Below, piece after piece: positions 2,259-62,756 of a stretch of DNA of 64,000 nt (positions are counted from its first letter, which is position 1; the number at the start of each line of letters is the position of its first letter). The DNA is from Emticicia aquatilis (GTDB taxonomy: Bacteria; Bacteroidota; Bacteroidia; Cytophagales; Spirosomataceae): assembly GCF_014644295.1 (NCBI RefSeq), contig NZ_BMKK01000002.1, forward strand, positions 372,001 through 436,000, given 5' to 3'. A model generated the notes under the pieces. It saw only the letters and a program-made list of their open reading frames with translations. It was not told where the DNA came from and made no database searches. Made by a program: the position numbers and the translations under genes.

Positions 2259-2704
2259 GTAAGCCGTCTTATCGCAGTTATCTTTCGGGGTGGCTGAGGA
2301 AAGTCCGAACAGCAAAGAGCATCATGCTACCTAACGGGTAGGGAGTAATCGGGCGACTGATTATTTACAGCCAGTGCAACAGAAAATAAACTACCGCAGC
2401 AATGCGGAAAAGGTGAAAAGGTAGGGTAAGAGCCTACCGCTCGGTTGGCAACAAACGAGGCACGGTAAACCTCATGAGCTGAAAGACCAAATAAACCGAC
2501 AGCCCCTCGGGGCTAAGGCTGCTCGTCTGAGTCGGAGGGTAGGTTGATAGAGGCAAGTAGTGATACTTGTTCGAGATAAATGATAAGAACCGTTATTAGT
2601 TATCGGTTATCGGTTATTTGTTATTAGTTTTGATTGTTAGTGATTAGACCTGTAACCAATAACCAATCAACTGATAACTGATTTCAGTACAGAATTCGGC
2701 TTAT
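2259..2704 (+). ncRNA. rnpB: RNase P RNA (class A)
   Basis: This is the catalytic RNA of RNase P, which removes 5' leaders from tRNA precursors. Diagnostic segments are visible in order: GAGGAAAGTCCGAACAGC near 2296, the P15-type GGTAAGAGCCTACCGC near 2425, GGCACGGTAAACCTC near 2460, and the 3' ACAGAATTCGGCTTA at 2690-2703. The ends pair (TAAGCCG at 2260-2266 with CGGCTTA at 2697-2703), which fixes both boundaries to within a few bases. The molecule is about 446 nt, longer than the usual 350-400 nt. The extra length is an A/T-rich arm at about 2585-2690, between the P18-like region and the final conserved ACAGAA, built of GTTATCGGTTATT-like units opposite AACCAATAACCAAT-like units. Confidence 0.96.
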
Positions 2705-4911: not shown

Positions 4912-5829
4912 CTATTTTGCTCTGCTTTTTAAGTCTTCTATTAATAATGCTGTTCTAAATTCTACTCCACTTTTAGTCAAGTGATATGGGGTATTAAACA
5001 TCATTGAGTCAGGCATCATGTACCTTTTTGCTGTACCTATAATATTTAGTTTTGAATGATTCAATTCATCTTCAATTTTCTTGATTTGATTGATTGAGTT
5101 TTTAAAACTTGATGCTTGATAGCACGGAAAAGAAACTAAGAGTACAGCTCCTTTTTTAGTTATTTCCTCATTGTATTTCTCAAAATATTTAATCACCTCA
5201 TAGTTAAAATCTCCACTGATAGTAGGAAATGGTATGAATCTTTCTGGCTTCTTGCCCCAGTGGGTATATGTATCCCCATACTTATTGAATGAATTAACAG
5301 AATATACATCACTTTCCTGAATATTTATGTACTCAGTTATTTTGTATTTACTTAAGGCATATTTTGGTAAAAAACTGACGATATTGAATAATTGCTGAAT
5401 GTCAAGATATTTTATGTTTGAAAAATCCACATCAAATATAATCCTCATTAATTCTTCCGAGCCCTCATCAAGGTTTCTATAATAATGTCCGTACTCAGGA
5501 ATCAAAACAACAATGTCGCCCTTTTTAATGTTTTCTACAGTATTATCAATCATGTATTTTATCCCAATCAAAGCATGAATTCCAGTATTAATAGGATTTA
5601 GACCTAATTTTGAGTAAACAGTTTGACTATTTAGTCCAAAGCATGTATTTGACCCCCCAACAAAAATAACACGAGGCGATTGGGTGTTTCTCAATAAAGA
5701 GTTTTTATTAATACTCGCCATTAATAATGATTTTGAAGCTCGTGGGGTTGTTGGCATTACTAAGCCACAGATAATAATGGTTGGTATTGGAAGTAAAAAA
5801 AGTAAAGTCTTAAATATAAATTTTTTCAT
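4912..5829 (-). CDS. SGNH-type membrane-anchored protein, partner of the MBOAT acyltransferase
   Basis: A protein of about 305 residues with one N-terminal membrane anchor (MKKFIFKTLLFLLPIP), then a Gly-Gly-Ser-Asn motif near residue 55 that matches the nucleophile block of SGNH/DltD/AlgJ-like proteins, and a C-terminal PYHLT segment corresponding to the catalytic His block. The ATG at 5829 is chosen because the frame upstream overlaps the MBOAT gene; this leaves a 7-nt gap, typical of a translationally coupled pair. Together the two genes resemble systems that move an acyl group across the membrane (MBOAT) and attach it to an extracellular glycan (SGNH). The substrate is unknown. In the final block an Asn (Phe-Asn-Thr-Pro-Tyr-His) stands where I would expect the catalytic Asp of DltD-like enzymes. 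Confidence 0.72.
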   Translation of the reverse strand: MKKFIFKTLLFLLPIPTIIICGLVMPTTPRASKSLLMASINKNSLLRNTQSPRVIFVGGSNTCFGLNSQTVYSKLGLNPINTGIHALIGIKYMIDNTVENIKKGDIVVLIPEYGHYYRNLDEGSEELMRIIFDVDFSNIKYLDIQQLFNIVSFLPKYALSKYKITEYINIQESDVYSVNSFNKYGDTYTHWGKKPERFIPFPTISGDFNYEVIKYFEKYNEEITKKGAVLLVSFPCYQASSFKNSINQIKKIEDELNHSKLNIIGTAKRYMMPDSMMFNTPYHLTKSGVEFRTALLIEDLKSRAK

Positions 5830-8773: not shown

Positions 8774-11449
8774 ATGGCTGAGGAAACAGAAAATTTAATT
8801 CCAGCGGACGACGATTCGCTATCTTCCAACAACGGCACAATTATCCCAATCAACATCGAAGACGAAATGCGTGGTGCATACATTGATTATTCAATGTCAG
8901 TTATCATTTCACGTGCTTTACCCGATGTTCGTGATGGACTAAAGCCTGTTCACCGTCGTGTGCTTTACGGTATGGCAGAGCTGGGAGTTTATCACAATCG
9001 TGCGTATAAAAAATCAGCCCGTATCGTAGGAGAGGTATTGGGTAAATTCCACCCACATGGCGACTCATCAGTTTATGGTACAATGGTGCGTATGGCTCAA
9101 CCTTGGTCGTTGCGTTATATGCTCGTTGATGGACAAGGTAACTTTGGCTCAATTGATGGCGACTCGCCAGCTGCCATGCGTTATACTGAGGCTCGTTTGA
9201 AGCGTATTGCCGAAGAACTTTTGGCCGACATCAACAAAGAAACCGTTGATTTTCAACCAAACTTTGATGATTCCCTCGAAGAACCATCAGTAATGCCTGC
9301 TAAGATTCCTAATCTATTACTCAATGGTTCGTCTGGTATTGCAGTAGGTATGGCCACTAATATGGCTCCGCATAACCTTTCGGAGGTAGTAGATGGTATT
9401 ACGGCGTACATTGATAATAACGAGATTACGGTCGAAGAATTAATGCAACACATCAAGGCTCCCGATTTCCCGACGGGTGGTGTGATTTATGGCTATAATG
9501 GCGTTAAATCGGCATTCGAAACAGGGCGTGGACGTATCGTAATTAGAGCTGTTGCTAATTTTGAAGTTTCAAAAACTGGCAAAGACCAAATCGTTGTTAC
9601 CGAAATTCCGTACATGGTTAATAAGGCCGCAATGATTGAGAAAACTGCTGCTTTGATTAACGATAAGAAAATCGAAGGAATCTCTGATATGCGTGACGAG
9701 TCTGACCGTGACGGTATGCGTATTGTATATGACCTCCGTAAAGACGCAGTGCCAAACGTAGTTTTGAATAACTTATTCAAATATACTGAGCTTCAATCTT
9801 CTTTTAGCATCAACAACGTAGCCTTATCTAAAGGTCGCCCGGTAACGGTTAACCTAAAAGATATGATTCGCTTCTACGTTGACCACCGTATGGAGATTGT
9901 CACACGTCGTACACAATACGACCTCCGTGAAGCACAAAAAAGAGCTCATATCTTAGTTGGTCTTTTAATTGCCCTTGATTACCTCGATGCTGTTATAGCA
10001 CTCATTCGTAAGTCGAAAGATGCCGATGAAGCAAAAGCAGGTTTGATGTCTGGCGATTTTATGACTGCCAAAGAAAAAGAAGAATTCTTACTTACTGGTG
10101 TTCAACGCTTACAAATCGTTGAGACGTATGATAACGATGCCGCTAACGGAATTATCCTTAGCGAGATTCAAGCAAAAGCTATCTTAGATATGCGTTTGCA
10201 ACGTCTCACCGGATTAGAGCGTGATAAAATCATTGCTGAATACAACGAAATTAAAGCTTTAATTGATGATTTAAGGTCAATATTGGCATCAGAAGAGCGT
10301 AAACGTAATATTATCAAAGATGAGTTAGCAGAATTGAAAGCTCGTTACGGTGATGCACGACGTTCTAAAATCGAAATGGCCGCGGGTGAATTCAGCATCG
10401 AAGATATGATTCCAGATGATGAAATGCTCGTTACGATTTCTCACCAGGGATACATCAAACGTACTCCATTGCAAGAATATCGCACACAAGGCCGTGGAGG
10501 TACTGGTTCTCGTGGTGTTAAAACTAAAGATGAAGATTATACCGAACATCTTTTTGCTGCAACCAATCATAATTATTTATTATTCTTTACACGCAAAGGG
10601 CGTTTATTCTGGATGCGTGTTTTTGAAGCACCTGAAGGAGCAAAAACTTCAAAAGGTAGAGCTATTCAAAACCTTATCAATATCGAAGCCGATGATAAAA
10701 TTCAAGCGGTTTTGAATGTAAAAACACTTTCTGATGAGGATTACATCAATAATAATTATATCGTAATGTGTACGGAAGACGGAACCGTGAAAAAGACTCT
10801 TTTGGAGGCTTACTCTCGTCCACGTCAAGGAGGTATCATTGCTATTAATATCGCCGAAGGCGATAACTTATTGGATGTAGCACTCACCAACGGCGATAAT
10901 AACATCGTAATTGCTGCTCGTAATGGTAAAGTAGTTCGTTTCCACGAATCAGGTACACGCCCGATGGGTCGTACTGCAACTGGTGTGCGTGGTATCAACC
11001 TCGAAGAAGGCGACCGAGTTATTGGTATGGTCTGTGTATCGAGAGAAGATACTCAACTCTTAGTTGTATCAGATAAAGGCTACGGAAAACGCTCTGACAT
11101 TGACGATTATAGAGTGACATCAAGAGGTGCTAAAGGTGTAAAAACGCTAAATATTACTGATAAAACTGGTGCTTTGGTGGCTATCAAAGAAGTAACTGAT
11201 GATGATGATTTGATGATTATCACCAAAAAAGGTGTTGCTATCCGCATTAAAGTATCAGATTTGCGTGTAATGGGCCGAAATACACAAGGCGTAAAACTAA
11301 TTCGCATGAGCGATTCTGACGATATTGCATCGGTAACTCGAATCATTCGTGAAGAGGAGGAAGACGTTGAAAATCCAACTGATGGAGCAGTAGATGAATC
11401 ATCAGCAACCGAAGTAACTGATTCGCCAGAAACTCCAACAGCAGAATAA
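8774..11449 (+). CDS. gyrA: DNA gyrase subunit A
   Basis: GyrA cuts and rejoins DNA in the gyrase A2B2 complex, introducing negative supercoils. The winged-helix and tower regions and a six-bladed C-terminal domain are present over 891 residues. The catalytic tyrosine is Tyr137 (AAMRYTEAR). A GyrA-box-like QGRGGTG near residue 574 identifies gyrase rather than topoisomerase IV ParC. The quinolone-determining loop reads [13 protein letters not shown]: Ser98 matches E. coli Ser83, but Gly102 stands where E. coli has Asp87. The C-terminal 30 or so residues are acidic and low-complexity. It is transcribed from its own promoter and is not paired with gyrB here. Confidence 0.97.
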
Positions 11450-11699: not shown

Positions 11700-13157
11700 A
11701 TGAAAAAAATCATTTTAGCGTCTGTAATGACAGTATTTACAACAGGCGTTTATGCACAGGGTGCTATTGATGCCCAATTGAAAGAAGCCCAATGTAAGAC
11801 CGCTACTGATAATATAGCTAAAGCCGAAAAAGCAACACAAGACCCCAAGAAAGGAGTAAAATCAGCAACATGGGTAAAATTGGCTGAATCTCAAATCGAA
11901 ATGGCTATTGACTGTGGCAAAGACTCATCAGCTTCTGAAAAAGCATATAACACATATATGAAAGCCTTAGAAGTAGATAAAGCAGCAGGAGGGAAGGGTG
12001 TAAAGGATATTGAAACTGCCATGTCTGGTACAACTTCAAGATTATATACTTCATTAATGCAACAAGGTGCAGGTTTCTATAATTCTAAGAACTTCAAAAA
12101 CGCTCTTAAATTATTCAAATTGGCATCTGCAACAAGCCCTAAAGATACAATCGCAACATTATACGCAGGTATTGTAGCTCAGCAAGGACAAGAATTAGCC
12201 GATGCAAAAACGTATTTTGGCAAATTCATTGAGCAAGGAGGAAAAGACGTAGCAGTATTCTATGGTTTGTCTGAATTATACAGAAACGATAAAGAAAGTG
12301 CTAAAGCAGTAGAAATCTTGAAAAAAGGTATTGCTGTAAATCCTAAAGATAAAGATTTGCAAAGCTCGCTTATCAACGCTTACTTAGGTGGTGGCATGAT
12401 GAACGAAGCGATTGATATGATGAAGCAAAGAGTAGCAAGTACTCCAAATACTCCGGAGAATGCTAAAAACTTAGCTGAAGATTTCAAAAACTTAGGTACA
12501 TTATACGAAAATGGAGCAGGGGAGTTTGAAAAGAAAATCCGTCCACTTGAAAGCGAATTGAGTGTAGCTGCACGTGAAAAAGCTGAAGCAGAAAAAGATT
12601 TAGCCAATGTAGAAGGTAAAAAAGCAGCTCAAGAAGACGAATTAAAGCGTTTGAATGATAGATTGAAAAAAGAGCCTAAAAATGCCGCTTCAATCAAAGG
12701 TAGTATTGCTTCCGTAACTCAAATGATTGCATCTGCTAATTCTGAAGTAGAAGCTGCTAAACAAAAGATTGCAAAAGCAACTCAAGCAGCTCAAAATGGT
12801 AGCAAAAATGAGGCAGAATTGAAAGAATTGAAAGCAAAAGAAGCAGAATTGAAAGATTTAGCTGTTGCGAACTACAAAAAAGCTCTTGAAATCGACCCAG
12901 CTAACTTTGATGCTAACTACAACTTAGGTGTTTATTATTTCAATTCAGCGGTTGTAGCTAAAGGTGCAGTAGATAGAATGGATATGAAAACTTACAATGA
13001 GAAGGGCAAAGCTATCGAAGAACAAGTTTGTGCAACATTCAATCAATCAAAAGTTTACTTCGATAAATGCAAATCGTTGAAAGCAGATGACCAAGATACA
13101 AATGCTAATCTTGACAACTTGAAAGGGGTACTTGAGCAATGTGCTAAACGTAAATAA
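11700..13157 (+). CDS. Periplasmic TPR protein with central coiled coil
   Basis: A 485-residue protein with a signal peptide (about residues 1-20, ending TGVYAQG). Residues 120-260 form several tetratricopeptide repeats (for example KNALKLFKLASATSPKDTIA and AVEILKKGIAVNPKDKD), residues 275-395 are a Lys/Glu/Ala-rich coiled coil, and a further TPR follows near 400 (YKKALEIDPANFDANYNLG). Such proteins are scaffolds; no enzymatic motif is seen. The arrangement occurs in Bacteroidota envelope proteins of unknown role. It has its own promoter and terminator, so it is a single-gene unit. Confidence 0.8.
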   Translation: MKKIILASVMTVFTTGVYAQGAIDAQLKEAQCKTATDNIAKAEKATQDPKKGVKSATWVKLAESQIEMAIDCGKDSSASEKAYNTYMKALEVDKAAGGKGVKDIETAMSGTTSRLYTSLMQQGAGFYNSKNFKNALKLFKLASATSPKDTIATLYAGIVAQQGQELADAKTYFGKFIEQGGKDVAVFYGLSELYRNDKESAKAVEILKKGIAVNPKDKDLQSSLINAYLGGGMMNEAIDMMKQRVASTPNTPENAKNLAEDFKNLGTLYENGAGEFEKKIRPLESELSVAAREKAEAEKDLANVEGKKAAQEDELKRLNDRLKKEPKNAASIKGSIASVTQMIASANSEVEAAKQKIAKATQAAQNGSKNEAELKELKAKEAELKDLAVANYKKALEIDPANFDANYNLGVYYFNSAVVAKGAVDRMDMKTYNEKGKAIEEQVCATFNQSKVYFDKCKSLKADDQDTNANLDNLKGVLEQCAKRK

Positions 13158-13192
13158 TTGATTATCAGTTATTTGTCAATAATATTTTTAAG

Positions 13193-13230
13193 AAAAAGTC
13201 TGCTGAGAAAATTCTCAGCAGACTTTTTTT
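13193..13230 (+). terminator. Terminator of the TPR/coiled-coil gene
   Basis: A long perfect hairpin AAAAAGTCTGCTGAGAA / TTCTCAGCAGACTTTTT followed by T. Its base lies 40 bp before the dif-like site. Confidence 0.92.
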
Positions 13231-13270
13231 ATGGGAGAGAGTATATTAGAATGGAGTTATAAAAAGTATT

Positions 13271-13298
13271 ATTTAACATAATGTAAATTATAAAACTC
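13271..13298. other. dif-like XerC/XerD recombination site
   Basis: The 28-bp segment contains ATTTAACATAA (13271-13281), a perfect match to the XerD half-site of E. coli dif on the opposite strand, then a 6-bp centre TGTAAA and TTATAAAACTC, which keeps the TTAT core of the XerC arm but otherwise differs. The XerC arm is the more variable one across bacteria. The site lies in non-coding DNA just after a terminator, near the point where transcription of highly expressed genes converges. The identification is by pattern only. Confidence 0.6.
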
Positions 13299-13350
13299 GC
13301 ATTTATATATAGATTTATATCTATTAAGTATATATATTATAATAGTTACT

Positions 13351-13450
13351 GTATTCCTACTCACGCACTCAGCTCTCTCTTCACTATATTTCCTCTCGCC
13401 TTCACTACTCCATACTTCCTTTGACTATACTTACATCTCACCACTCTCGT
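13351..13450. other. C-rich, G-poor non-coding block
   Basis: In these 100 bases I count 38 C and 6 G on the plus strand, with no credible ORF on either strand. On the minus strand it reads as purine-rich units such as AGTGAAG and GAGAGG that look like decayed tandem repeats. It begins about 50 bp after the dif-like site. Confidence 0.6.
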
Positions 13451-13505
13451 ATAATTATTTCTGCGTAGAAATATATGTTTGGGCTTCCATTTGTCCTTTC
13501 ATATC

Positions 13506-13571
13506 CTTTCTGAGAATTGAATAAAAAATATTAACTGATACATTGTATATGAATATCGAATTCTCAGAAAG
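13506..13571. repeat. 13-bp inverted repeat with 40-nt loop
   Basis: CTTTCTGAGAATT at 13506-13518 is perfectly complementary to AATTCTCAGAAAG at 13559-13571. It lies in the 760-bp gap between the TPR gene and the membrane-protein gene and has no T tract. No ORF lies inside. Confidence 0.55.
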
Positions 13572-13848
13572 CTCAAAAATGGCTTTTTTGCTCGGTATGA
13601 AGGTTTTATAAATGTCATAAGCAAAAGTTACAAGACAATAAAACGATTTTGTTTATATTGAGTTTTTATTAAAATCTAAAATATCTTTATGAATAGCGTA
13701 CAAACTCGCAATAGATATTCTTAAATAAATTTAGTGAATTATAAAAAAGAAATTTATAAATAATTAACAGTCAATTAGTTATGAGAATATATGTGTGTTG
13801 ATAAGTGACTTGAAAAGTATTCAAAAGGTGCATTTTTGGAATATAAAA

Positions 13849-13887
13849 TCCACAAATGCAGAAAAATCCACGTGGAACATTTGTGGA
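13849..13887. promoter_or_regulatory. parS-like / nested palindromic site
   Basis: A 10-bp inverted repeat (TCCACAAATG at 13849-13858, CATTTGTGGA at 13878-13887) encloses the palindrome TCCACGTGGA (13867-13876). Bases 13864-13879 match the ParB site TGTTCCACGTGGAACA at 13 of 16 positions, with the right half perfect. The right arm also overlaps TTTTCCACA on the minus strand, one base from the DnaA box TTATCCACA. It could be a centromere of the parA/RHH cassette or a ParB site. Confidence 0.45.
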
Positions 13888-13917
13888 AAAGTTGTAAATT
13901 CTTGTGAATATCCACTT

Positions 13918-14412
13918 TTAAGGAATAGAGTCCCCTACCGAATAATTGTTAATTAGGTCTTCACAGAATAAATTATAGTAATTATCATCGACCTTTACAA
14001 TTAGCTTATTTTTCTTCAAATACTCGTCAAAACCCTTAGAAACTACTATTTTAGTGCCTTTTACCTTATTTAGAAACACAATTGAATCATAATAATTAAT
14101 ATATGTAGGCTTTGTAGTATCCTTCAGAGCCTTAATTTCTGCTTTTGTAACTACAATAGTATCTTTTTGTATGCTCGTTGGCATACTTTTATTCGATTCT
14201 TCAGTAAAAAAGTATTTATGTAATTGGTAGCCAGAGGCAGCGAAGATGATTGCGGTAAGAGCATAGTATCCAATTCTTCTGGATGAATCTTGTTTTGACT
14301 GAATACTATGCTCGTTATATATAGGATTGTCAGGAATCTCCTGTACAGTCTCTTTATTCAGAACTTGTTGCGGAAGTTCTAATTTTTGAAATTCAAATTT
14401 TGTCTTTTCCAA
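13918..14412 (-). CDS. Single-pass membrane protein of unknown function, TTG start
   Basis: I do not recognise this 164-residue protein. Residues 1-46 are polar and Gln/Glu-rich, residues about 47-68 are a membrane helix (IGYYALTAIIFAASGYQLH), and the rest is a Lys/Asp-rich soluble part, presumably periplasmic. No ATG lies in the frame between the upstream stop and the membrane segment, so the TTG at 14412 is the likely start. A full-consensus promoter lies about 85-115 bp upstream. It is the last gene in the minus-strand series parA, RHH gene, this gene, but its own promoter means it can be expressed separately. A role in partition is inferred only from position. Confidence 0.65.
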   Translation of the reverse strand: MEKTKFEFQKLELPQQVLNKETVQEIPDNPIYNEHSIQSKQDSSRRIGYYALTAIIFAASGYQLHKYFFTEESNKSMPTSIQKDTIVVTKAEIKALKDTTKPTYINYYDSIVFLNKVKGTKIVVSKGFDEYLKKNKLIVKVDDNYYNLFCEDLINNYSVGDSIP

Positions 14413-14496
14413 AAGGTCACAAAAGTTTTTGTATTCCTAAAATAATAGGATTCGGGACGGTTGATAAACTTTTTACGATTCTTCTTGGGTTCGACG

Positions 14497-14528
14497 CAAA
14501 TATAATTTATTGTGGAGTGAAAATCAAA
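14497..14528 (-). promoter_or_regulatory. Promoter of the membrane-protein gene
   Basis: On the minus strand TTTG (14528-14525), a 20-nt spacer and TATATTTG (14504-14497) match the Bacteroidota consensus. It overlaps the gap just past the RHH gene stop, so the downstream gene has a dedicated promoter and a leader of roughly 75 nt. Confidence 0.78.
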
Positions 14529-14531
14529 AGA

Positions 14532-14858
14532 TTAGCTCATAAATGCTTTGAGAGCTTTAGGTTTACGGCCAACCTTCTTACGCATCTTTACTTTCTCCGG
14601 GCGTTCTTTTATTTTTTTGTCTTCAAAAAATACTCCAAGAGCTTCTATGATAATATCTTTCTGAGACATCCCTTCCCAATATCCATAGTCTTTCATTTGT
14701 TCAACCAGTTCATTCGGACAGTCAAATGTTACTTTAGTTGATGGGCCAGAATCTTGAATCGAACTTAATATATTGTTTGCCTGAACTGCTGCTGCATTTT
14801 CGGCTGTTTTGCCAGTTGGAACTAAACTTTCAAAAGTGAAATTTTTATTTTTTGCCAT
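14532..14858 (-). CDS. Ribbon-helix-helix DNA-binding protein, likely ParB-type partner of ParA
   Basis: A 108-residue basic protein. Residues about 41-78 fit the ribbon-helix-helix fold: a short strand (TKVTFDCP), helix (NELVEQMKDYGYW), turn, helix (SQKDIIIEALGVFFED). The N-terminus is polar and probably flexible, and the C-terminus is a Lys/Arg-rich tail (KMRKKVGRKPKALKAF) suited to DNA contact. Small RHH proteins encoded directly after a short ParA are the centromere-binding partners in type Ib plasmid partition systems. The 62-bp gap to parA contains a perfect palindrome that could be its binding site. An antitoxin role is less likely because no toxin-sized neighbour is coupled to it. Confidence 0.75.
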   Translation of the reverse strand: MAKNKNFTFESLVPTGKTAENAAAVQANNILSSIQDSGPSTKVTFDCPNELVEQMKDYGYWEGMSQKDIIIEALGVFFEDKKIKERPEKVKMRKKVGRKPKALKAFMS

Positions 14859-14920: not shown

Positions 14921-15685
14921 TTATTGCTTTAGGCTACCCAAAATCTCTTTGGTTAAATTATAATAATCCATTGCACCATTACTGTCGGGCGAATAAGAAA
15001 ATATATCTAAGCCATTTGCTTGTGCTTCCGAAACCGCAATATTATCACGGATAGTTGTCTTGAAAAATTTATCACCCAATTGTTGTTTGGTTGCTTCAAT
15101 CAAATCATTACTTAGTTTTTTATTTATCTTAGGATTATATCGGGTAGCGAAAACACCACCTAAATGAGTATTTGGGCTAATCTGTTGTAGCTCCGAAGAA
15201 TAAATCAAGAAATTACGTAAACCTTCATAACTTAAAAACTCGGCTTGAAGTGGAACCAAGTACATATCGCAAGCAATAAGTGCAATACGAGTCATACCCG
15301 AAAGTGTGGGTGGACAGTCAATCATGATAAACTCATAATTCTTTTTGACTTTATCAATCAGTAACTTTAAATTAAATGGGAATACTGGCGAAGCTTTAAT
15401 GGTATCTTCTTTTGCATTCAATTCAGCCGAACTTGGAAGTAAATCACCAATCGCAGTCTGGATGACAACTGTGTCAAAAGATAATTCACCAGTCAGATAA
15501 TTGCCTACGTGATTTCTCCCTACTTGAGCCTCTTGTACTCCGAAGCAACGGGTCAAACTTGCCTGCCCATCGAGGTCAATGAACAATACCCTCGCTCCTG
15601 CAAATTTCTGAAACGCCGCTCCTAAGTTTTGAGTTGAAGTGGTTTTACCTACCCCGCCTTTGTTGTTAACTACGCTAATAATCAT
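14921..15685 (-). CDS. parA: ParA-family partition ATPase
   Basis: A 254-residue ParA/MinD-type ATPase with the deviant Walker A KGGVGKTTSTQNLG at residues 9-22, Walker A' FIDLDGQASLT near 36 and Walker B FIMIDCPPTLS near 119. It lacks an N-terminal DNA-binding domain, as in short type Ib ParA proteins. The start is taken at 15685 (MIISVVNNKGG) because the frame further upstream encodes only an A/T-derived hydrophobic stretch. ParA moves DNA cargo over the nucleoid using a partner that binds a centromere; here the partner is probably the RHH gene 62 bp downstream. No parB with a large HTH/CTPase domain lies adjacent, so this looks like a plasmid-type cassette in the chromosome. Confidence 0.88.
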   Translation of the reverse strand: MIISVVNNKGGVGKTTSTQNLGAAFQKFAGARVLFIDLDGQASLTRCFGVQEAQVGRNHVGNYLTGELSFDTVVIQTAIGDLLPSSAELNAKEDTIKASPVFPFNLKLLIDKVKKNYEFIMIDCPPTLSGMTRIALIACDMYLVPLQAEFLSYEGLRNFLIYSSELQQISPNTHLGGVFATRYNPKINKKLSNDLIEATKQQLGDKFFKTTIRDNIAVSEAQANGLDIFSYSPDSNGAMDYYNLTKEILGSLKQ

Positions 15686-15759
15686 TGGATATGAAAGAAT
15701 AATATTTACCCGCAATATATGGCAAATAAAATATATCAACAATATCAATGTAATTAATT

Positions 15760-15768
15760 TTATCCACA
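15760..15768 (+). promoter_or_regulatory. Perfect DnaA box
   Basis: TTATCCACA is an exact match to the DnaA box consensus, 75 bp upstream of the parA start, at the edge of the very A/T-rich block. A single box is not proof of an origin; in this composition it may be chance or may contribute to parA control. Confidence 0.4.
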
Positions 15769-15780
15769 GTATTTTAAAAT

Positions 15781-16080
15781 AAGAAAATATCAATCAAAAT
15801 ATAATTACATATAGTTTAATACTTTTAAATAATATGAATTTATATAAAGCTATAAATGTTCTATTTTAATGGTTATTTTAAATAGTATATTTTATTTATA
15901 ATGTAATAAAAAAAATATATAAATTAATAGTTTTTTTCTTTCATATATTATTGAAAATACAATATGTTTATTTGTAATTAAAATAATAAAAATTACAATA
16001 ATTAATAAAAGTATATATATATTAAAATGTTATGTAATAAATTAATTAATAAAAAGTATTATTAGTATAAAACTAAATAT
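15781..16080. other. Non-coding block of about 90% A+T
   Basis: By hand count 29 of 300 bases are G or C. There is no ORF. The stretch holds A and T runs and one copy of the ATAAAAAGTATT motif (16049-16060). It fills most of the gap between parA and the B12 lipoprotein gene. Such DNA is typical of nucleoid-protein binding, an origin unwinding element or foreign DNA; which applies is open. The remaining gap, 16080-16360, shows nothing I recognise. Confidence 0.6.
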
Positions 16081-38067: not shown

Positions 38068-39768
38068 TTTTTTGTATTCAGCAAAAACTTCAGCATTTCT
38101 AGAACCATCCACTTCCACTTCAATCACAACTGGTCGGTTTGTTTTTTGGTGAAGCAAGTTTAACGCACTTTCGAGACTTGCTTCATCATTAACTTTAAAG
38201 TATTCAACATCATTTTCTTTGCAAAAATACTCAGCCGTACTGTTTTGTTTAGTTTCAAAATAATCACCTACTTCTAGTTGCTTACTTGGCCCATCAATGA
38301 TTCTAAAAATGTTTCCGCCATGATTATTTATTAATATAACTCTCAGATTATCAGGCAAATACGTGTTCCAAAAGGCATTTCTATCATAGAAAAATGACAT
38401 ATCTCCTATCAAACAAGTGACAATCTTATCAGTTTTCAAAGCACTTCCAACCGCCGAACTCATTGAACCATCAATGCCACTTGTGCCTCGATTAGCAAAA
38501 ACTTCTATATTTTTACCCTTTTCTAAGCCTATGAGATTTGAATATCGCACTACCATACTGTTGGCAAGATGAAATATCGAATTCTCAGGCAGTTTATCAA
38601 CTACATTTCTAATCACTTTAAATTCGCAATAATCCGAATTATTCAAAAAGCTATTCAACTTTTGCTTAGCCTTTTTACTTACTTCATTCCAAAACTCAAA
38701 ATATTCGTTATCAACTTCTTCATCGCCTTCTCTAAAATTTAAAAAATCTAAATCTTCAAAAAGTTGCCCAAAGAAATATTCAGGAGATACTTCTACTTTA
38801 TGAGTTAAGGTTTGAAATGGGTCAATCAAATCAGGATTTTCTTGAATATGAAAATGATACGTTGGCCTATTATTTCTTATGAAAATTTTCAAATTTTTAG
38901 AAATTACCGACTTCCCACAAGTAATAAGTAAATCTGGTTTTAGTTTTCGTTTAAAACTTTCGTTTTTTGATGATAAAAATACATCAGCCAATATTGGGTC
39001 AATATTATTTACGTTTGAAATAATATCTGCGACTACCGGCACGCATAACTCCTCTGAAAATTTTTCTAAAATTTTATTCAACTCAGAACTTTGTCGATGC
39101 CCAACTACAATCAATTTATTTTCAGAGTTTTGCCAAATTTCTTTAAAATCAATCCAAAATTGATTCGGTAGTTTTTTTTCTATCGCAGCATTTTGAATAA
39201 TTCTGACATTTCTGTCAAATGAAATTACTTCCTCTGCTGTTGGGTAAAACGGTTCTCGAATTGGTACATTTATATGTACAGGACCTTTAGGATGAACTTG
39301 TGTTAAATTAATAGCCTCATTCATTACTCGCTCAATCTGCCATACTGCGTCAGGATTTGAATAGTCAGATGGTAACTCAAAACTTTTCTTTACATGCTTA
39401 CCATAAATTTCTCTCTGAAAAATTGTTTGTCCATCGTATTGATGAATCCACTCAGCAGGTCGGTCAGCTGTAAGAATAATCATCGGAATTTCTTGAAAAT
39501 AAGCTTCGGCAATGGCAGGTGCAAAATTATAAGCGGCCGTCCCCGAGGTACAAACCAAGGCAACTGTTTCACCAGTTGCTTGTGCCATACCCATTCCTAT
39601 AAATCCTGCCGAACGTTCATCACTGATACTGAGCGTTTCAATATCTGGATGGCGAACCATCGAAATCGTTAGTGCCGCACTCCGTGAGCCAGGACAAAGA
39701 ATGGCTGTCTTCACATTTTTCCTCGAAAATATCTCCGCAATATTATGAATAGGTTGTAAAATTGCCAT
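38047..39768 (-). CDS. menD: 2-succinyl-5-enolpyruvyl-6-hydroxy-3-cyclohexene-1-carboxylate synthase
   Basis: MenD is a thiamine-diphosphate enzyme joining isochorismate and 2-oxoglutarate in menaquinone synthesis, the respiratory quinone of Bacteroidota. ThDP-binding and active-site segments are visible: CPGSRSAAL near residue 27, SDERSAGFIGMGMAQATG near 50, TADRPAEW near 99 and GDMSFFYDRNAFW near 456. The start is taken at the ATG 39768; the longer frame begins at a TTG three codons upstream. The length of about 573 residues is normal. Other men genes are not in the window. Its 3' end overlaps the TPR lipoprotein gene by 21 bp. Confidence 0.95.
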   Translation of the reverse strand: MAILQPIHNIAEIFSRKNVKTAILCPGSRSAALTISMVRHPDIETLSISDERSAGFIGMGMAQATGETVALVCTSGTAAYNFAPAIAEAYFQEIPMIILTADRPAEWIHQYDGQTIFQREIYGKHVKKSFELPSDYSNPDAVWQIERVMNEAINLTQVHPKGPVHINVPIREPFYPTAEEVISFDRNVRIIQNAAIEKKLPNQFWIDFKEIWQNSENKLIVVGHRQSSELNKILEKFSEELCVPVVADIISNVNNIDPILADVFLSSKNESFKRKLKPDLLITCGKSVISKNLKIFIRNNRPTYHFHIQENPDLIDPFQTLTHKVEVSPEYFFGQLFEDLDFLNFREGDEEVDNEYFEFWNEVSKKAKQKLNSFLNNSDYCEFKVIRNVVDKLPENSIFHLANSMVVRYSNLIGLEKGKNIEVFANRGTSGIDGSMSSAVGSALKTDKIVTCLIGDMSFFYDRNAFWNTYLPDNLRVILINNHGGNIFRIIDGPSKQLEVGDYFETKQNSTAEYFCKENDVEYFKVNDEASLESALNLLHQKTNRPVVIEVEVDGSRNAEVFAEYKKLFTDFT

Positions 39769-60107: not shown

Positions 60108-62756
60108 ATGGAAAAAAGTTATCAAAATAGCAATACTGGCGATAGAAATAGCCAAAGAGGTTTTGGAAAAAATCTATTCTTAGAAAGTTTCCGAAATGAA
60201 ACTGGCAAACTACCTCCTCAAGCAGTTGAACTTGAAGAGGCGGTTTTGGGTGCATTAATGATTGAGAAAGATGCACTTACCTCGGTTGTTGATATTCTTC
60301 AACCATCAAGTTTCTACAAAGAATCTCATCAGAGAATATATAACGCAATTCTTCAATTATTTGGTAAATCAGAGCCAATAGATATGCTCACCGTAACTAC
60401 TCAGTTGAGGAGTAACGGTGAGCTTGAGTTTATTGGTGGTGCTTCTTACTTAGTAAAATTGACGAATAAAGTAAATTCGGCAGCAAATATTGAATATCAT
60501 GCTCGTATTATTACTCAATCTGCTATCAAGCGTGATATGATTAAGATTGCGGGAGACATTTTGAAAGATGCTTATGAAGATACTACCGACGTATTTACGC
60601 TTTTAGATAAAATCGAACAAAATTTCTTTGAAATTTCTGAGCGTAATATTCGTAAAAACTACGCCGATGCAAGCACAATCATGCGTGCAACCATTGAAGA
60701 ATTGGAGAAAAAGAAAAATAATAAAGATGGCCTCACTGGTGTAGCCAGTGGCTTTACTGCTCTTGACCGCATCACGAGTGGTTGGCAAAATACTGAATTA
60801 ACCATCATTGCAGCAAGGCCAGCGATGGGGAAATGTTTAGGAAAAGGCACTAAAGTTTTGATGTTTGACGGTTCTCTGAAAAATGTTGAAGATATTGAAA
60901 CAGGTGAACTTCTAATGGGTGACGATTCTACTCCAAGAACAGTTCTTTCGATAGCACGAGGTCAAGAAAAAATGTATTGGATTCGCCAAAACAAAGGCAT
61001 TGACTATCGTGTAAATGAAAGCCATATCCTGTCACTTAAAAGAAGTAGGAACGAAGGAAAACACAAAAAAGGAGAAATACTGAATATAACTGTAAAAGAG
61101 TTTCTTGAAAAATCAGACAAATTCAAAAGCAATTATAAAGGATATAAAGTTGCAGTTGAATTTGATGAAAAAAGTCTTGAAATTGAACCCTATTTCTTAG
61201 GTCTCTGGCTTGGAGATGGACATTCTTACAGTTCAAGAATAACAAATGTTGATACTGAAGTTGTTGGATATTTAGACCAATATGCTCAAAAATTAAATCT
61301 TGAACTGGTTACGTATCAGCAAGAAGGAAAAACTAATAATTATGCAATTACAAAAGGGTTTAAAGGACAGCAAGACTACTTTAGTATTCAGAATGAACTT
61401 AGAGAACTGAATTTGCTACAAAACAAGCATATTCCTCAACATTATTTAATTAATTCTACAGAAAACCGTTTAAACCTTTTAGCTGGATTGTTAGATAGTG
61501 ATGGTAATTATGATGCTAAATTTAATTGTTTTGAGATTACTCAAAAAAATGAAGAATTAGCCAAGCAAATAAAATTCTTGTGTGATAGTTTAGGTTTTAG
61601 AACTTCTATTAAAGAAAAAAAGACAACAATAAAGTCCCTAAATTTTGAAGGCAAAGCGTTTAGAGTAAGGATTTTTGGAAACTTAGACTCAATTCCAACG
61701 AAGATTGAGCGTAAACAAGCTCGACCACTAAAAGCAAAAGCAGATTGGAGAGTTACAGGAATAAAAGTTGAGTTTGACAAAGTTGATAATTATTATGGGT
61801 TTGAAATTGATGGAAATCGTCTTTTTTTACTCGAAGATATGACAGTCACTCACAATACCGCCTTTGTAGTCTCTGCTATGCGTAATGCTGCTGTTGAGTG
61901 GGGAGTTCCTGTGGCTTTATTTTCATTAGAGATGTCAGCAACTCAGTTAATGCTTCGTTTGATTTCGGCAGAAGCTGAAATTGACAGTAATAAACTACGT
62001 AAAGGCAAACTCGAAAACCATGAGTGGGTTCAGTTGCACCAAAAAATAAAGAATTTATCTTCAGCACCAATTTATATTGATGACACCCCTGCCCTTTCTA
62101 TATTGGAAATGCGTGCTAAGTGTCGTCGTTTGAAAGCACAGTTTGATATTGGATTGGTTATCATTGACTACTTACAATTGATGACTGCCGAAAGTGGCGG
62201 TGGTGGAAAAGGAAATCGTGAACAGGAAATTGCTGCGATTTCAAGAGCCATGAAAAACCTTGCCAAAGAAATTAATGTACCAGTAATTGCACTTTCGCAG
62301 TTAAGTCGTGCAGTAGAAACTCGTGGAGGAGACAAGCGTCCGCAGCTTTCAGATTTACGTGAATCGGGGTCTATTGAGCAGGATGCAGACATGGTTATGT
62401 TCTTGTATCGTCCAGAATACTATAAAATTACTCAAGACGAACAAGGTAATTCAACCGAAGGAGTTGGTGAGGTAATTATTGCCAAAAACCGTAGTGGAGA
62501 TGTGGATACTGTGAAACTCAAATTTATTGGTAAATACACTAAGTTTACAGATTTAGATGGCTTCTATACACCACTTCCAGGTCAGGATAATTTTGGTGAT
62601 TTCAATATGCCAAAACCAATCAATACAACTGGGGCCTTAGATAATTTCGAAAGAAGTGCACCACCAAGTTCAAATACAGGAGGGGGGACAGTCACGCTTG
62701 GAAGCAAAGCAAATCAACCAAGAAATCTGGATGCCGAGACCGATTTCCCGTTCTAA
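60108..62756 (+). CDS. dnaB: Replicative DNA helicase DnaB with an intein in the Walker A loop
   Basis: DnaB unwinds DNA at the replication fork. The host protein (about 541 residues after splicing) has the N-terminal domain (PPQAVELEEAVLGALMIEKDAL), the linker and a RecA-type C-terminal domain (GLVIIDYLQLM, IALSQLSRAVE). The P-loop ARPAMGK is broken after Lys242 and continues with Thr584 (TAFVVSAMRNAA), the two parts together giving the normal Walker A. Between them lies a 341-residue intein. After removal the protein matches standard DnaB, so the insertion must splice for the cell to live unless another dnaB exists. The start at 60108 is the first ATG after an A/T-rich leader. Confidence 0.97.
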   Translation: MEKSYQNSNTGDRNSQRGFGKNLFLESFRNETGKLPPQAVELEEAVLGALMIEKDALTSVVDILQPSSFYKESHQRIYNAILQLFGKSEPIDMLTVTTQLRSNGELEFIGGASYLVKLTNKVNSAANIEYHARIITQSAIKRDMIKIAGDILKDAYEDTTDVFTLLDKIEQNFFEISERNIRKNYADASTIMRATIEELEKKKNNKDGLTGVASGFTALDRITSGWQNTELTIIAARPAMGKCLGKGTKVLMFDGSLKNVEDIETGELLMGDDSTPRTVLSIARGQEKMYWIRQNKGIDYRVNESHILSLKRSRNEGKHKKGEILNITVKEFLEKSDKFKSNYKGYKVAVEFDEKSLEIEPYFLGLWLGDGHSYSSRITNVDTEVVGYLDQYAQKLNLELVTYQQEGKTNNYAITKGFKGQQDYFSIQNELRELNLLQNKHIPQHYLINSTENRLNLLAGLLDSDGNYDAKFNCFEITQKNEELAKQIKFLCDSLGFRTSIKEKKTTIKSLNFEGKAFRVRIFGNLDSIPTKIERKQARPLKAKADWRVTGIKVEFDKVDNYYGFEIDGNRLFLLEDMTVTHNTAFVVSAMRNAAVEWGVPVALFSLEMSATQLMLRLISAEAEIDSNKLRKGKLENHEWVQLHQKIKNLSSAPIYIDDTPALSILEMRAKCRRLKAQFDIGLVIIDYLQLMTAESGGGGKGNREQEIAAISRAMKNLAKEINVPVIALSQLSRAVETRGGDKRPQLSDLRESGSIEQDADMVMFLYRPEYYKITQDEQGNSTEGVGEVIIAKNRSGDVDTVKLKFIGKYTKFTDLDGFYTPLPGQDNFGDFNMPKPINTTGALDNFERSAPPSSNTGGGTVTLGSKANQPRNLDAETDFPF
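60834..61856 (+). mobile_element. Intein with LAGLIDADG-type homing endonuclease domain inside DnaB
   Basis: Codons 243-583 of dnaB. The element begins with Cys (CLGKGTKVLMFDG) and ends with a Val-Thr-His-Asn junction before Thr, the class 1 splice ends. Block B is RVNESHILSL with its His; block F is YYGFEIDGNRLFLLEDM. Between the splice halves lie two homing-endonuclease motifs, YFLGLWLGDG and LNLLAGLLDSDGNYD, both with the catalytic Asp. The endonuclease therefore looks intact and the element potentially still able to spread into intein-free dnaB genes. Confidence 0.95.

What the first reader, a model, noticed from the sequence alone, without database searches (positions are those of the whole stretch)
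13271..13298. dif-like Xer site at a convergence of highly expressed genes: candidate replication terminus
The 11-bp XerD arm matches E. coli dif perfectly (minus-strand TTATGTTAAAT), followed by a 6-bp centre and a TTAT-containing second arm. Left of it rpsP and gyrA point right; right of it rpoD, pnp and rpsO point left. Two hand-counted samples of the plus strand inside minus-strand genes support a skew change: 4921-5100 has 26 G / 27 C, 38081-38250 has 23 G / 38 C. All three point to a terminus near 13 kb.
Basis: partly seen in the sequence, partly recalled or inferred. Interest (0 to 1): 0.7.

Follow-up and report, generated by a model that had tools for sequence, protein, structure and literature searches.

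The report
Chromosome-terminus dif site beside gyrA
This 28-base sequence is very probably the site where the bacterium's Xer enzymes separate fused chromosomes at the end of replication, and in its wider bacterial class the same kind of site is often found just after the DNA gyrase gene gyrA.

Summary
The 28-mer at 13271-13298 is real and almost certainly the chromosomal dif site. The core motif occurs once in the 6.75-Mb draft genome and in 146 of 197 sampled genomes of the class. Own genome has XerD, a XerC-like recombinase and an FtsK gamma domain. E. coli-type KOPS (GGGNAGGG) point at the site: 11 of 12 within 200 kb either side, orientation switching between window 11,991 and 14,670; also 21 of 25, 12 of 16 and 13 of 15 in three other genomes. 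In one closed relative the GC-skew switch brackets dif, with origin marks nearly opposite.

Beyond the finding: dif lies 0-20 kb downstream of gyrA in 69 of 115 genomes (32 of 45 families), none within 20 kb upstream; about 0.7 expected by chance. The gyrA-TPR side is conserved, the XerC-arm side is not. My paper searches showed no report of this linkage. Against: the linkage may be neutral, one closed relative has dif far from the antipode, raw skew in own contig gives no clear switch, and nothing was tested at the bench.

The parts
13271..13298 (-). chromosomal dif site (28 bp); XerC-XerD order reads 5'->3' on the minus strand
   Evidence: core motif once in the genome, conserved in relatives and class; KOPS converge here
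13271..13281 (-). XerD-binding arm (TTATGTTAAAT on minus strand), facing gyrA
   Evidence: sequence; 11 of 11 with E. coli dif (recalled)
13282..13287 (.). 6-bp central region TGTAAA
   Evidence: mostly TATAAA or TGTAAA in close relatives
13288..13298 (-). XerC-binding arm; its outer 7 bases, outside the searched pattern, differ between genomes
   Evidence: site lists
13191..13230 (+). strong terminator-like hairpin after the TPR gene; 40 bp separate it from dif
   Evidence: 18-bp stem, z -6.8; not listed by the consensus terminator scan
11700..13157 (+). TPR-repeat protein gene; conserved XerD-side neighbour of dif
   Evidence: Pfam TPR; homologue left of dif in 38 of 87 loci not chosen by neighbour
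8774..11449 (+). gyrA, transcribed toward dif
   Evidence: Pfam; class-wide linkage to dif
11991..11998 (+). KOPS-type octamer GGGAAGGG pointing to dif
14670..14677 (-). KOPS-type octamer GGGAAGGG pointing to dif from the other side
2336..2343 (+). KOPS-type octamer GGGTAGGG pointing to dif
62087..62094 (-). KOPS-type octamer GGGCAGGG pointing to dif

Best explanation
The 28-mer is this chromosome's dif site, in the replication-terminus region. Inferred from the E. coli model: a crossover between sister chromosomes gives a dimer; FtsK at the septum, guided by KOPS, pumps DNA from both sides until it reaches the two dif copies; its gamma domain activates XerD on the ATTTAACATAA arm; XerD and XerC exchange strands within the 6-bp centre and resolve the dimer. 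Shown here by sequence: the site, its conservation, the presence of XerD, a XerC-like recombinase and FtsK-gamma genes, KOPS converging on the site, and a strand-corrected skew change close by. Not shown: binding, cleavage or recombination. The site lies just behind a terminator-like hairpin after the gyrA and TPR genes, an arrangement recurrent in the class.
For: Core motif once in 6.75 Mb and in 146 of 197 class genomes; exact motif in 37 of 58 relatives. GGGNAGGG toward the site: 11 of 12 in own 400 kb, switch bracketed at window 11,991-14,670; 21 of 25 in G003, 12 of 16 in G006, 13 of 15 in G157, another family; base composition alone predicts ratios of only 1.1-1.4. G003, one contig of 5,177,490 bp: sampled skew positive to 2.62 Mb (one sample -0.001), negative from 2.86 Mb, dif at 2.707 Mb; six DnaA-like boxes at 5,164,440-5,164,991 and an exact parS pair at 5,168,785/837, so the antipode (2.58 Mb) is about 2.5% of the genome from dif; its two rRNA operons diverge from there. 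XerD model 353.2 bits, over its cut-off; XerC model 306.7, that protein's best hit but under the 335.15 cut-off; four of 13 tyrosine recombinases of own genome were scanned. FtsK gamma domain in 15 of 15 genomes searched, own included.
Against: In G031 (one contig, patchy skew) dif at 278 kb is about 1.2 Mb from the point opposite its parS-like pair. In own contig the best third-position cut is at window 33-36 kb, not at dif, and a two-segment fit of raw skew lands at window 204 kb. Own genome is a 36-contig draft, so its antipode cannot be measured. G006 KOPS alone is weak (p 0.038; origin assumed at 1.956 Mb from two of five one-mismatch parS-like places); its sample at 1.85 Mb has the wrong skew sign for that origin, and its terminus bracket also holds dnaA. 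GGNAGGGG ranks above GGGNAGGG among 56 arrangements. In G157 the best KOPS breakpoint (793.0-823.5 kb) lies 6.5 kb or more before its site.
Confidence: 0.95

Rival explanations
1. Chance match in an AT-rich intergenic stretch.
For: About 0.35 exact matches expected in the genome by my arithmetic; relaxed matches are not enriched.
Against: Conserved site at the same gene junction in 8 of 8 same-genus loci fetched, core motif in 146 of 197 class genomes, KOPS switch within 2.7 kb.
Confidence: 0.01
2. A Xer attachment site left by, or serving, an integrated Xer-dependent element rather than the host's dif.
For: Such elements are reported in Bacteroidetes (PMC3091885, passages read); a dif-like site is on 6 viral contigs.
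Against: Only one core site in own genome, so no flanking pair; ordinary chromosomal genes on both sides among those scanned; KOPS converge here.
Confidence: 0.03
3. For the linkage only: gyrA stays beside dif by neutral hitchhiking, because few rearrangement breakpoints are tolerated in the short gap and the essential genes.
For: The left gap is often under 150 bp; gyrA is essential (general knowledge); dif should stay at the terminus.
Against: In 9 of 20 fetched linked loci the first right-hand ORF starts within about 135 bp of the start of dif, yet right neighbours are not shared (right-slot means 0.1, left 10.9 and 15.1; that sample was chosen for linkage and oriented by dif., not chosen by neighbour: 38 of 87 left against 5 of 80 right).
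Confidence: 0.55

Closest known systems
XerCD/dif chromosome dimer resolution (E. coli dif)
   Same: 11-6-11 layout, identical XerD arm, 20 of 28 positions, terminus position, KOPS convergence, XerD and FtsK-gamma genes
   Different: XerC arm and centre differ; position beside the gyrA and TPR genes; no activity test
dif sites predicted for 19 of 19 single-chromosome Bacteroidetes strains (Kono 2011, PMC3025954; passages and part 1 of the Discussion read)
   Same: same kind of site near the skew shift; XerC arm said to be more variable than XerD arm in all phyla
   Different: the parts read name no gyrA neighbourhood and no Bacteroidetes KOPS
gyrA position survey (PMC8359277; passages read)
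   Same: the six Bacteroidetes rows seen have gyrA at 33-47% of the chromosome from oriC, i.e. toward the terminus; most proteobacterial rows seen are at 22-48%
   Different: no link to dif in the passages read

Membership tests
XerCD/dif site | 28 bp, two 11-bp arms around a 6-bp centre, conserved XerD arm | tested here: met
   the arms could not be compared fairly because its pattern fixed most positions
XerCD/dif site | one copy per chromosome | tested here: met
   one core match in own draft genome
XerCD/dif site | lies near the skew switch, roughly opposite the origin | tested here: met
   own strand-corrected skew cuts lie on both sides of it, raw skew unclear; met in G003; not met in G031
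XerCD/dif site | KOPS converge on it | tested here: met
XerCD/dif site | genome encodes XerC, XerD and FtsK with gamma domain | tested here: met
   the XerC-like protein is under the XerC model's cut-off
XerCD/dif site | XerC/XerD bind and recombine it; deletion gives unresolved dimers | not testable with these tools
   needs the bench

The most novel reading that the evidence does not exclude
Across the class, dif is anchored to the 3' end of the gyrA and TPR genes by function or by a one-sided ratchet: Xer-dependent elements insert at dif, keep the host XerD arm with gyrA and supply a new XerC arm, so that only the XerC-side flank turns over. This would explain the conserved left side, the shuffled right side, the variable XerC arm (also known from other phyla) and the excess of degenerate dif copies on the right (6 same-orientation against 1.7 expected; left 0 against 1.0).
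Probability: 0.25. Interest if true: 0.68.

Novelty: new member of a known kind. Interest (0 to 1): 0.5.

Why it matters
[quoted passage not shown] This site, with E. coli-type KOPS converging on it, gives a concrete substrate to test. The gyrA-dif linkage gives a simple aid for finding the terminus in draft genomes of the class, and raises the testable question why one side of dif is conserved and the other fluid.

Tried and rejected
Raw GC skew as decisive evidence: rejected, dominated by gene strand. dnaA as a mark of the origin: rejected. It lies about 223 kb from dif in own genome and 0.69 Mb from dif in G003, far from the DnaA-box/parS cluster. parB as an origin mark: not near parS in G003. 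An unguided search for dif-directed 6- to 8-mers gave no clean winner; it dropped words with fewer than 20 counts in either genome, which leaves out rare octamers such as KOPS. GGGNAGGG, recalled from E. coli, was tested by name in the same call and then more closely. B. subtilis SRS (GAGAAGGG): too few sites, 3:2 and 1:1. ParA as a class-wide neighbour: rejected, found right of dif in 15 of 148 loci, 8 of them own genus. Own parS-like sites lie on other contigs and are one-mismatch only. Comparing the two arms: rejected, its pattern fixed most positions. The pair of dif-like sites in G119 looked like a Xer module, but the genome is listed with 5% contamination and one arm resembles E. coli dif, so it may be foreign. 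The family count (46) held one genome without a family label; the recount is 45.

Full report
Observation. The 28-mer is at the stated coordinates, the arm match is exact and both base counts are right. Gene directions hold: S16 and gyrA right, sigma-70 and pnp left. The motif by itself could be chance; about 0.35 exact matches are expected by my arithmetic. Conservation decides.

Conservation. Exact ATTTAACATAA-N6-TTAT occurs in 37 of 58 relatives, own genome included. Several family sites read ATTTAACATAATATAAATTATATAACAT, so bases beyond the searched pattern are shared too. In the class, the core motif occurs in 146 of 197 genomes; by my reading of the table the reversed control matches in 3.

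Terminus. Over 400 kb of own contig the raw cumulative skew peaks at window 22,847, but a two-segment fit of raw skew lands at window 204 kb, so raw skew is not decisive. With gene strand removed, the 12 best third-position GC-skew cuts all fall at window 3-39 kb, on both sides of dif (gain 62-65; 54.2 at dif; maximum of 100 permutations 18.8); third-position AT skew is weaker (best 25.0, at dif 21.0). In G003, one contig, 20 samples show positive skew up to 2.62 Mb except one of -0.001, and negative skew from 2.86 Mb on; dif is at 2,706,927. Six DnaA-like boxes and an exact parS pair at 5.164-5.169 Mb and two rRNA operons diverging from there mark the origin nearly opposite. G006 broadly fits, but its bracket also holds dnaA and one sample has the wrong sign. 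G031 does not fit: dif at 278 kb, parS-like pair at 4.157 Mb, patchy skew.

KOPS. GGGNAGGG (E. coli, recalled) was tested by name. Own 400 kb: 12 sites, 11 toward dif, and the best-fitting orientation switch lies between the sites at window 11,991 and 14,670, with dif between them. G003: 21 of 25. Among all 56 arrangements of six G, one A and one N, pooled over own and G003, it ranks second after GGNAGGGG. G006: 12 of 16. G157, a different family with almost no skew: 13 of 15; its best breakpoint lies 6.5 kb or more before the site. Together 57 of 68.

Machinery. XerD scores 353.2 bits (cut-off 329.6). The XerC-like protein scores 306.7 on the XerC model, its best hit, but under the cut-off of 335.15. 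FtsK gamma is found in 15 of 15 genomes.

Neighbourhood. 113 bp separate the TPR gene from dif; a strong terminator-like hairpin lies between. Of 148 dif loci, 63 of the 127 with at least 1,200 bp on the left have TPR or gyrA there, same direction. In genome-contig loci not chosen by neighbour, the largest homologous gene cluster within 2 kb is 38 of 87 loci on the left (TPR), then 30 (gyrA) and 16 (a transporter-like protein, by eye); on the right it is 5 of 80. Right neighbours of linked loci from many families are hardly shared (that sample was chosen for linkage).

Class-wide linkage. gyrA was found in 184 of 197 genomes; the printed list was cut, and the 149 genomes with a listed place were used. 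115 have both core dif and a listed gyrA place; 82 on one contig. In 69 of 115 dif lies 0-20 kb downstream of gyrA (50 within 3 kb), in 32 of 45 families; none lies within 20 kb upstream; 64 of 69 have the same orientation; about 0.7 expected under uniform placement, which ignores that the genomes are related. 13 of the 82 lie further away; the 33 on different contigs cannot be judged. Five more genomes are linked through the exact motif only, one of them flipped. G157 is not linked: its gyrA is about 140 kb from dif. I also took 20 genomes from the printed gyrA list that lacked the exact motif and had room downstream: 14 have a site with 1 mismatch and one with 2 within about 8 kb downstream of gyrA, 14 of these 15 in the same orientation; 5 shuffles of each stretch never gave fewer than 2 mismatches. 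The six Bacteroidetes rows of PMC8359277 that I saw put gyrA toward the terminus, and most proteobacterial rows seen lie at 22-48% too. None of my paper searches showed a report of the dif-gyrA linkage; these were full-text searches of open papers, and for most hits I saw only the listing.

Mechanism and limits. The dif function is inferred from the E. coli system. Why gyrA stays is open: neutral hitchhiking (about 0.55) or a one-sided process. Degenerate dif copies (up to 3 mismatches) lie to the right in 8 cases (6 same orientation, 2 opposite; 1.7 expected per strand) and to the left in none (1.0 expected per strand) over 152 loci. That hints at Xer-dependent insertion on the XerC side, but the numbers are small.

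Noticed in passing
G000:C2:161352-162734 (about 209 kb left of the window); G003, G006, G031: dnaA is far from the origin marks and in own genome and G003 nearer dif: about 223 kb and 0.69 Mb from dif; no DnaA-like boxes in the 20-kb G003 dnaA sample.
   Followed up: partly
window 14921-15793 (-): A ParA-family ATPase gene lies on the XerC-arm side of dif in own genome and in 15 of 148 dif loci, 8 of them own genus; two small ORFs downstream of it match no Pfam or NCBIfam family.
   Followed up: partly
G126, G171, G222, G083, G153: In 5 of 69 linked genomes dif is flipped relative to gyrA but still within 3 kb of it.
   Followed up: no
L253-L258: Six viral contigs carry a dif-like site; one 5.5-kb contig encodes a portal protein (10 proteins scanned). 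They may be Xer-dependent phages or host flanks.
   Followed up: partly
L350 (G119:C236:93000-101584): Two direct dif-like sites 4.4 kb apart flank an AAA ATPase gene and a subtilase gene; possibly a Xer module, possibly a contaminant contig.
   Followed up: partly
window 13340-13446 and 13495-13600: Right of dif: a stretch of 107 bases with 6 G and 38 C on the + strand, then an imperfect hairpin, z -3.3.
   Followed up: no
L143, L146, L150 and 13 other loci: In 16 of 87 loci, Algoriphagus and Belliella among them, the left neighbour of dif is a transporter-like gene (by eye) pointing away instead of gyrA-TPR.
   Followed up: no
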